Assembly: GCF_000834055.1 (NCBI RefSeq)
Contig: NZ_JXSQ01000002.1
Location: forward strand, 1-64,000
DNA from: Leucobacter komagatae
Lineage (GTDB): Bacteria; Actinomycetota; Actinomycetes; Actinomycetales; Microbacteriaceae
Direction of reading: 5' to 3'
DNA: 64,000 nucleotides
Both the position numbers and the translations under genes were made by a program. Shown piece after piece: positions 40,201 through 42,287 of the stretch (position 1 is the stretch's first letter; every line of letters starts with the position of its first letter). Under the pieces are notes generated by a model, which was not told where the DNA came from, searched no databases, and saw nothing but the letters and a program-made list of their open reading frames with translations.

Positions 40201-42287
40201 ATGGAGACAACCCGCACTGTCCGCCCCTTCGAGGTTGTGAGCGAGTACGAGCCGAGTGGCGATCAGCCGCAGGCGATCGAGGAACTCTCGAGACGCATCA
40301 ACGCTGGTGACACTGACGTTGTGCTGCTTGGTGCAACCGGTACGGGCAAGTCCGCGACAACGGCCTGGCTCATCGAGGCGGTGCAGCGCCCCACGCTCGT
40401 GCTCGCACACAACAAGACGCTCGCGGCGCAGCTCGCGACCGAGTTCAGGCAGCTCTTCCCGAACAATGCCGTCGAGTACTTCGTCTCCTACTACGACTAC
40501 TACCAGCCAGAGGCCTACGTGCCGCAGACCGACACCTTCATCGAGAAAGACTCGTCAGTGAACGCGGAGGTCGAGCGCCTCCGCCACTCGACGACGAACT
40601 CGCTGCTCAGTCGGCGCGACGTGATCGTCGTGTCGACCGTCTCCTGCATCTACGGCCTCGGCAAGCCCGAGGAGTACTACGAGGCGATGGTGCCACTCGT
40701 CGTCGGTGACCGGCTCGACCGCGACGTGCTGCTCAGGCGCTTCGTCGACATGCAGTATCAGCGCAACGACATCGAGTTCGTGCGCGGCAACTTCCGCGTG
40801 CGCGGCGACACGGTTGAGATCATCCCGATGTACGAGGAGCTCGCGATCCGCATCGAGTTCTTCGGCGACGAAATCGAGGCGCTCTACTATCTTCACCCGG
40901 TGACGGGCGACGTCGTCAAACAGGTCGACTCGGTGTCCGTGTTCCCCGGTTCGCACTACGTTGCGAGCCGCGAGGTGATGAACCGGGCGATGGGGCAGAT
41001 CACCGACGAGCTCGATGTTCGCACGAGAGAACTCAAGGAGCAGAACAAGCTCGTTGAGGAGCAGCGGCTGCGCATGCGCACAACTTTTGACCTCGAGATG
41101 ATGGAGCAGATCGGCTTCTGCTCGGGCATCGAGAACTACTCGATGCACATGGATGGCCGCAAGCCAGGCGAGGCCCCGCACTGCCTGCTCGACTACTTCC
41201 CGGACGACTTCCTTGTGGTGATCGATGAGTCACACGTGACGGTTCCGCAGATCGGTGCGATGTACGAGGGTGACTCCTCGCGCAAGCGCACGCTCGTGGA
41301 TCACGGCTTCCGCCTGCCGAGCGCGCTCGACAACCGGCCGCTGAAGTTCGGCGAGTTCAAGGAGCGGGTCGGCCAGACCGTCTACCTCTCGGCCACCCCG
41401 GGCAAGTACGAAATGGGCATTGCTGACGGTGTCGTCGAGCAGATCATTCGCCCGACGGGCCTCATCGATCCCGAGATCGTCGTGAAGCCCTCCGAGGGGC
41501 AGATCGATGACCTCCTCGAGGAGGTGCGCACCCGCGTTGAGCGCGAGGAGCGAGTCCTCGTCACGACGCTCACCAAGAAGATGGCCGAACAGCTGACCAC
41601 GTTCATGGAGGAGGCAGGCGTCAGGGTGCGCTATCTCCACTCCGACGTGGACACCCTGCGCCGCGTCGAGCTGCTCACCGAGCTCCGCGCCGGTGTGTAC
41701 GACGTTCTGGTCGGCATCAACCTGCTGCGTGAGGGGCTCGACCTCCCTGAGGTCTCGCTCGTCGCGATCCTCGACGCCGACAAGGAGGGCTTCCTGCGCT
41801 CCGCCACGTCGCTCATCCAGACGATCGGCCGCGCCGCGCGTAACGTGTCGGGCGAGGTACACATGTACGCCGACCGGATCACTCCGTCGATGAAGCTCGC
41901 GATTGACGAGACAACGCGTCGACGCGAGATCCAGGTGGAGTACAACACGAAGCACGGGATCGATCCACCCCCCTCCGCAAACAAATCGGCGACATCACCG
42001 AGATGCTCAACCGCGAGGCTGCCGATACCGAGGACGTGCTCGCGAGTCGAGTCGCAAAGCACGCCCAAAAGGGTTCACCGCAGCGCGCGAAGGGTAAGGC
42101 TGCGTCGCGTGCAGGCGCGATCGGTGCCGAGGGTGCTGGCAAGCTCGAGGAGCTCATCAGCGATCTCACCTCGCAGATGCTGCTCGCGGCTGAAGAACTC
42201 AAGTTCGAGCTCGCTGCCCGGCTGCGCGACGAGGTGTCCGAGCTGAAGCGCGAGCTGCGCAGCATGGACGCCGCGGGCCACATCTAG
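40201..42287 (+). pseudogene. uvrB: excinuclease ABC subunit UvrB, frameshifted near the 3' end
   Basis: UvrB verifies DNA damage in nucleotide excision repair. From ATG 40201 the helicase core is intact: Walker A GATGTGKS (44-51), YYDYYQPEAYVPQTDTFIEKD beta-hairpin region, DESHVT and the motif VI QTIGRAARN. At codon 590-591 (CCACCCCCCTCC) the frame breaks: a six-C run at 41968-41973 needs one more C, or a -1 slip, to continue as LRKQIGDITEMLNREAADT and the C-terminal UVR domain (LEELISDLTSQMLLAAEEL) ending at 42287. Read literally, translation ends at 42246 with 90 foreign residues. Either a sequencing error or a real mutation. Confidence 0.92.

What the first reader, a model, noticed from the sequence alone, without database searches (positions are those of the whole stretch)
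41960..42287. -1 frameshift in a C6 run truncates UvrB before its UVR domain
The uvrB frame is clean to codon 589 (GATCCA). Then six C residues (41968-41973) are followed by TCC, which leads into 90 residues of nonsense ending at 42246. Starting a codon one base earlier, at 41973, restores LRKQIGDITEMLNREAAD and a full UVR domain ending at 42287. One extra C would repair the gene. Lost UVR would cut UvrB-UvrC contact, while uvrA and uvrC here look intact and both uvrA and uvrB keep SOS boxes. It may be a homopolymer sequencing error, a real mutator-type defect, a reversible poly-C switch, or ribosomal slippage.
Basis: seen in the sequence. Interest (0 to 1): 0.7.

Follow-up and report, generated by a model that had tools for sequence, protein, structure and literature searches.

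The report
One-base frameshift in a uvrB gene
In this draft genome the DNA-repair gene uvrB is one base out of frame near its end, which cuts off the part that contacts UvrC; no relative that was read shares the break, so it is probably a sequencing error or a very recent mutation and not a new mechanism.

Summary
uvrB (start 40201) is in frame through codon 589, then runs into 92 unrelated residues and stops at 42246. The conserved UvrB C-terminus, with its UVR motif, lies in another frame, 41973-42287. The break looks private: all 107 distinct relative sequences read have one frame across the site, and no second uvrB was found in the genome. Since the split from the nearest relative, Leucobacter sp. 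G161, the cut-off part changed almost only at third codon positions of its own frame, so the break is very recent or not real. The poly-C reading is partly supported. Against the nearest relative the missing nucleotide aligns in codon 589, one base outside the C6 run, but 85 more distant relatives (of 107) place it within the run. Only 0.09% of random positions lie that close to a run of six. No relative read has more than five Cs there. Similar breaks occur elsewhere in this genome and, at a comparable rate, in four other Leucobacter-genus assemblies. A base-calling or assembly error is slightly favoured over a recent loss-of-function mutation; only reads can decide. A reversible switch or ribosomal slippage has no support beyond the neighbouring run. 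Interest is low.

The parts
40201..41967 (+). uvrB body, codons 1-589, in frame
   Evidence: NF003673/TIGR00631 over 1000 bits; 97% aa identity to Leucobacter sp. G161
41965..41967 (+). codon 589, where the alignment to the nearest relative places the missing nucleotide
   Evidence: most Gln-type relatives place it 2-6 bases further on
41968..41973 (+). C6 run beside the break
   Evidence: 43 C6 and 35 G6 runs in 740 kb of this genome
41968..42246 (+). out-of-frame tail, 92 residues plus stop, of the protein as assembled
41973..42287 (+). UvrB C-terminal part in the other frame (104 residues plus stop)
   Evidence: 95% aa identity to G034/G161; 46 synonymous to 5 non-synonymous codon differences
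42147..42251 (+). UVR motif cut off from the UvrB body
   Evidence: PF02151, 38.4 bits
40154..40169 (+). LexA-box-like site upstream of uvrB (weak)
   Evidence: 2 mismatches
43969..43984 (+). LexA-box-like site upstream of uvrA
   Evidence: 1 mismatch
44016..47108 (+). uvrA, open frame (start as listed by the ORF tool)
   Evidence: named by eye
47105..49122 (+). uvrC, coding segment with its own UVR motif at 47845-47934
   Evidence: named by eye

Best explanation
The break is a single missing nucleotide in this one assembly, most likely a base-calling or assembly error in or beside a C-rich stretch. The strain would then carry an ordinary full-length UvrB. Shown: the frame break, its absence from all relatives read, the conserved state of the cut-off part. 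Inferred: that the cause is technical. If the sequence is true, the product would be a UvrB body without domain 4.
For: 107 of 107 distinct relative sequences carry one uninterrupted frame across the site. The cut-off part differs from G161 at 57 bases, 50 of them in third codon positions of its own frame, 46 synonymous to 5 non-synonymous codons, so there is no trace of relaxed selection. uvrA and uvrC frames are open. The assembly is a 62-contig draft. Eight apparent frame breaks were judged by eye in 740 kb of it; six were compared with relatives, one of them a gain of a C in another C6 run, in a nadA-like gene. A break in a core gene also occurs in a single-contig relative (a transketolase-like gene in G035), which suggests that such errors are found in this kind of data. 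The aligned gap is one base from a run of six, where 0.09% of random positions lie.
Against: No reads and no second assembly of the same species were available; the closest match, the fragmented genome G027, ends at residue 432. The break rate here (8 in 740 kb) is not clearly above that of four relatives (6 in 851 kb), so the assembly is not shown to be unusually bad. Four of the six breaks compared with relatives are not within 2 nt of a run of 5 or more, unlike a typical homopolymer-error profile. The sequencing technology is unknown.
Confidence: 0.52

Rival explanations
1. A real, recent one-nucleotide loss in this isolate, possibly by slippage near the C-rich stretch. It yields UvrB without domain 4: a folded body that should bind UvrA and DNA but lack the UvrC contact, with its ATPase freed from autoinhibition, so excision repair is crippled.
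For: Several other conserved genes show private one-base changes (five losses, one gain among six compared with relatives), as in a strain with recent pseudogenes. Solved-structure entries of UvrB with 593-residue chains (6o8e-6o8h) match query residues 10-589 up to chain residue 585, so the body can be made and solved without the UVR part. Domain 4 contacts UvrA and UvrC (PMC2997466, passages) and is autoinhibitory (PMC7835731, passages).
Against: uvrB is in one frame in all 107 relative sequences read, and the cut-off part shows no decay, so the mutation would have to be very young.
Confidence: 0.4
2. A reversible poly-C contingency switch that turns full-length UvrB on and off.
For: A C6 run lies one base from the break, and 85 of 107 relatives have a best gap placement within the run.
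Against: Against the nearest relative the gap is outside the run; no relative read has more than five Cs there; C6 is ordinary in this genome (43 C6 and 35 G6 runs in 740 kb). Known switches usually have longer runs (recalled).
Confidence: 0.03
3. Ribosomal or transcriptional slippage on the C run makes some full-length UvrB from the broken gene.
For: CCC CCC would let a proline tRNA re-pair one base back into the C-terminal frame (seen in the sequence; inference).
Against: All 107 relatives read use one plain frame, so the two-frame layout is not conserved; stimulatory elements were not tested. It would only matter if the break is real.
Confidence: 0.04

Closest known systems
UvrB of Leucobacter sp. 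G161 (NZ_LOHP01000051.1)
   Same: 97% identity over residues 1-589 and 95% over the C-terminal part (as genome G034)
   Different: one uninterrupted frame
UvrB without domain 4 (593-residue chains 6o8e-6o8h; UvrB* proteolysis product, recalled and seen as a reference title)
   Same: would lack the same C-terminal domain
   Different: those are made by design or proteolysis; here a 92-residue unrelated tail would be added
Single-base frameshifts in draft and single-contig bacterial assemblies
   Same: one nucleotide, private to one assembly, conserved frame on both sides
   Different: nothing apparent

Membership tests
UvrB (NF003673 / TIGR00631) | helicase body with the UvrB interaction domain, over the curated cut-off | tested here: met
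   1019.9 bits, cut-off 743; PF17757, PF12344, PF00271
UvrB (NF003673 / TIGR00631) | C-terminal UVR motif in the same frame | tested here: not met
   UVR only in the frame from 41973
Poly-C phase-variable gene | break lies inside the repeat | tested here: inconclusive
   outside the run against the nearest relative, inside it for 85 of 107 relatives
Poly-C phase-variable gene | a repeat of unusual length that is present in relatives | tested here: not met
   at most C5 in 107 relatives; C6 is ordinary in this genome
Poly-C phase-variable gene | mixed run lengths within one population | not testable with these tools
   needs raw reads
Programmed frameshift gene | the two-frame layout is conserved in relatives | tested here: not met
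   107 of 107 relative sequences have one frame
Programmed frameshift gene | stimulatory structure or Shine-Dalgarno-like element near the slip site | not tested
   no fold or element search was run
Sequencing or assembly error | reads disagree with the consensus | not testable with these tools
   no reads held

The most novel reading that the evidence does not exclude
The break is real and full-length UvrB is made at a low level by slippage on the C run, so that excision repair is dialled down in this strain.
Probability: 0.03. Interest if true: 0.5.

Novelty: not a real feature. Interest (0 to 1): 0.1.

Why it matters
As a finding it matters little: it is a caution that one-base breaks in conserved genes appear, by my count by eye, about once per 100 kb in this and four other assemblies of the genus, single-contig ones included, and should be checked against reads before a repair defect is claimed. 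If the mutation were real, the strain would carry a natural UvrB lacking domain 4, useful for asking what UvrAB does in a cell when UvrC cannot be recruited.

Tried and rejected
Second uvrB copy elsewhere in the genome: one full match in G000; the other listed G000 match is weak (E 2.9e-9), and the list was cut at its weak end. UVR matches: uvrB, the uvrC place, and an 841-aa frame in C18 that I take to be ClpC by recall.

Same-species second assembly: none found. G027 (99% identity over residues 1-432) stops at a contig end and has no match for the C-terminal part.

A visibly bad assembly: the frame-switch detector gave 14 candidates in 740 kb of G000 and 5 in 400 kb of G003, 1 in 200 kb of G020, 3 in 200 kb of G035 and 0 in 51 kb of G034. 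It recovered 34 of 60 simulated deletions. By eye, 8 of the 14 in G000 are breaks: six compared with relatives and two by eye only (an M20-peptidase-like gene, C4 near 19677, and an unnamed gene, C2 near 274822). Four are ordinary gene boundaries and 2 (C2 196754 and 260801) were not looked at. Among the controls I count 6 clear breaks: 2 in G003 (one of them found only by homology), 1 in G020, 3 in G035; one or two further G003 cases were unclear. The homology comparison gave 1 cluster in 198 kb aligned for G000 (uvrB), 2 in 209 kb for G003, 2 in 175 kb for G020, 1 in 89 kb for G035, 2 in 43 kb for G034; I took the G000 one, one of G003 and the one of G035 as solid, and the other five, with flanks of 21-32 residues at the start of the gene, as start-region noise, by eye. 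Earlier comparisons flagged more places in G000, among them C2 near 74.7 kb, 131.3 kb, 62.5 kb, 295.6 and 296.3 kb and C5 near 5.7 kb; three were viewed and not counted, the others were not followed. No clear excess in G000.

Open-frame length as a screen in 150 family genomes (145 with a match): useless for this lesion, since the broken gene itself measures 760 aa.

Literature: no paper holds Leucobacter with draft genome sequence and Ion Torrent (0 papers); some searches were seen as listings with abstract starts; one listing for uvrB with homopolymeric tract and frameshift, on Helicobacter pylori. The sequencing technology of this genome was not found.

Full report
What is there. The window is positions 1-64000 of contig C2 of a 3.67 Mb, 62-contig draft genome. 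The nearest named relative by UvrB is Leucobacter sp. G161, 97% over residues 1-589, whose own authors place it nearest L. komagatae by 16S (PMC4759080, whole text). uvrB starts at 40201. Codons 1-589 match the UvrB models with over 1000 bits. From 41968 the frame gives 92 further residues, beyond the UvrB match but for a few, and stops at 42246; the UvrB C-terminus continues in the frame from 41973 to 42287 and holds the UVR motif.

Is it shared? Not by any relative read. From 111 loci of relatives (L005-L113, L116, L117), 107 distinct sequences remained after identical ones were dropped. All 107 have the stretch G-x-[DE]-P-x-[PA]-L-R-K in one frame; 80 of 107 matched my pattern for the UVR core, and the 27 that did not were printed and show, by eye, the same core with variant residues. 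The residue after the first Pro is Gln in 85, Thr in 18, Lys in 4, never Pro; the longest C run over seven codons is five, in 3 of 107. Further genomes were searched but not read at the site. One full uvrB match was found in the genome.

Where is the lesion? Against the nearest relative, L005, the best alignment has a single gap just before A41967, in codon 589, not in the C run; the same holds for L006 and L007. Over all 107 relatives the result is mixed, and by number it goes the other way: 22 have a best placement before 41967, while 85, 86 and 73 have best placements before 41969, 41970 and 41973, in the run (co-optimal placements counted together). In the 30 rows printed, the seven with a placement before 41967 are relatives with Thr or Lys at the next residue, like the nearest one. 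Read by eye against L005, a loss in the run needs two more substitutions, one of them to Pro where no relative has it; no call scored that. I lean to codon 589 but do not exclude the run. Nearness to the run is unlikely by chance: 0.09% of 18,500 random positions lie within 1 base of a run of six or more.

How old is it? Between this genome and G161 the 104 C-terminal codons differ in 51 codons, 46 synonymous and 5 not; 50 of 57 base differences are in third positions of the UvrB frame. The upstream part shows the same pattern (171 to 16). So nearly all the divergence accrued while the frame was intact. That fits an error or a very young mutation, and speaks against a long-standing two-frame design.

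Is this assembly poor? I sampled 740 kb (20%). A codon-usage frame model with 57% recovery of simulated deletions (34 of 60) flagged 14 places. By eye 8 are breaks; six were compared with relatives: uvrB, and nadA-like, AMP-ligase-like, TauE-like, Nudix-like and PanE-like genes (names by eye). G034 has a frame without stops inside the match for each, though frame length alone would not reveal a lesion of this kind. In the ligase-like gene the G003 match, and in the TauE-like gene the G003 and G020 matches, were reported with one stop inside; I did not pursue these. The PanE-like gene had a match in G034 only. By alignment five lack one base and one, the nadA-like gene, has one C too many in a C6 run; the Nudix alignments are poor and hold several gaps. 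The same survey of relatives gave 6 clear breaks in 851 kb, among them a transketolase-like gene in the single-contig genome G035. So the rate here, about 1.1 per 100 kb against 0.7, is not distinctly higher. Judgement by eye was not blind.

What would it do if true? Solved-structure entries with 593-residue UvrB chains (6o8e and others) suggest that the body folds without domain 4. Domain 4 contacts UvrA and UvrC (PMC2997466, passages) and suppresses the ATPase and translocase activities (PMC7835731, passages). A truncated UvrB would thus be expected to load on DNA but fail to bring in UvrC for incision (the need for this contact in 3' incision is recalled). This is inference.

Verdict. A private one-nucleotide frame break, error slightly favoured over recent mutation; reads decide. 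The poly-C switch and slippage ideas have no positive evidence beyond the neighbouring run.

Noticed in passing
G000 contig C2 near 186697 (L127, outside the window): A nadA-like gene has one C too many in a C6 run relative to relatives.
   Followed up: partly
G000: C1 near 136047, C3 near 27484, C18 near 2796 and near 8668: Four more conserved genes (ligase-like, TauE-like, PanE-like, Nudix-like) each lack one base relative to relatives; the Nudix alignment is poor.
   Followed up: partly
G035 contig C1, about 71.5 kb into the sampled stretch (L191): A transketolase-like gene is frame-broken in a single-contig genome; queries from four other genomes span the place in one frame.
   Followed up: no
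G003 contig C1, about 239.2 kb into the sampled stretch (L164): The orthologue of the alcohol-dehydrogenase-like gene at window 38837-39877 is frame-broken at a G6 run in G003.
   Followed up: no
G088 (family genome): The UvrB match covers only part of the query, with a 606-aa frame in a single-contig genome of 86% completeness; perhaps another frame break.
   Followed up: no
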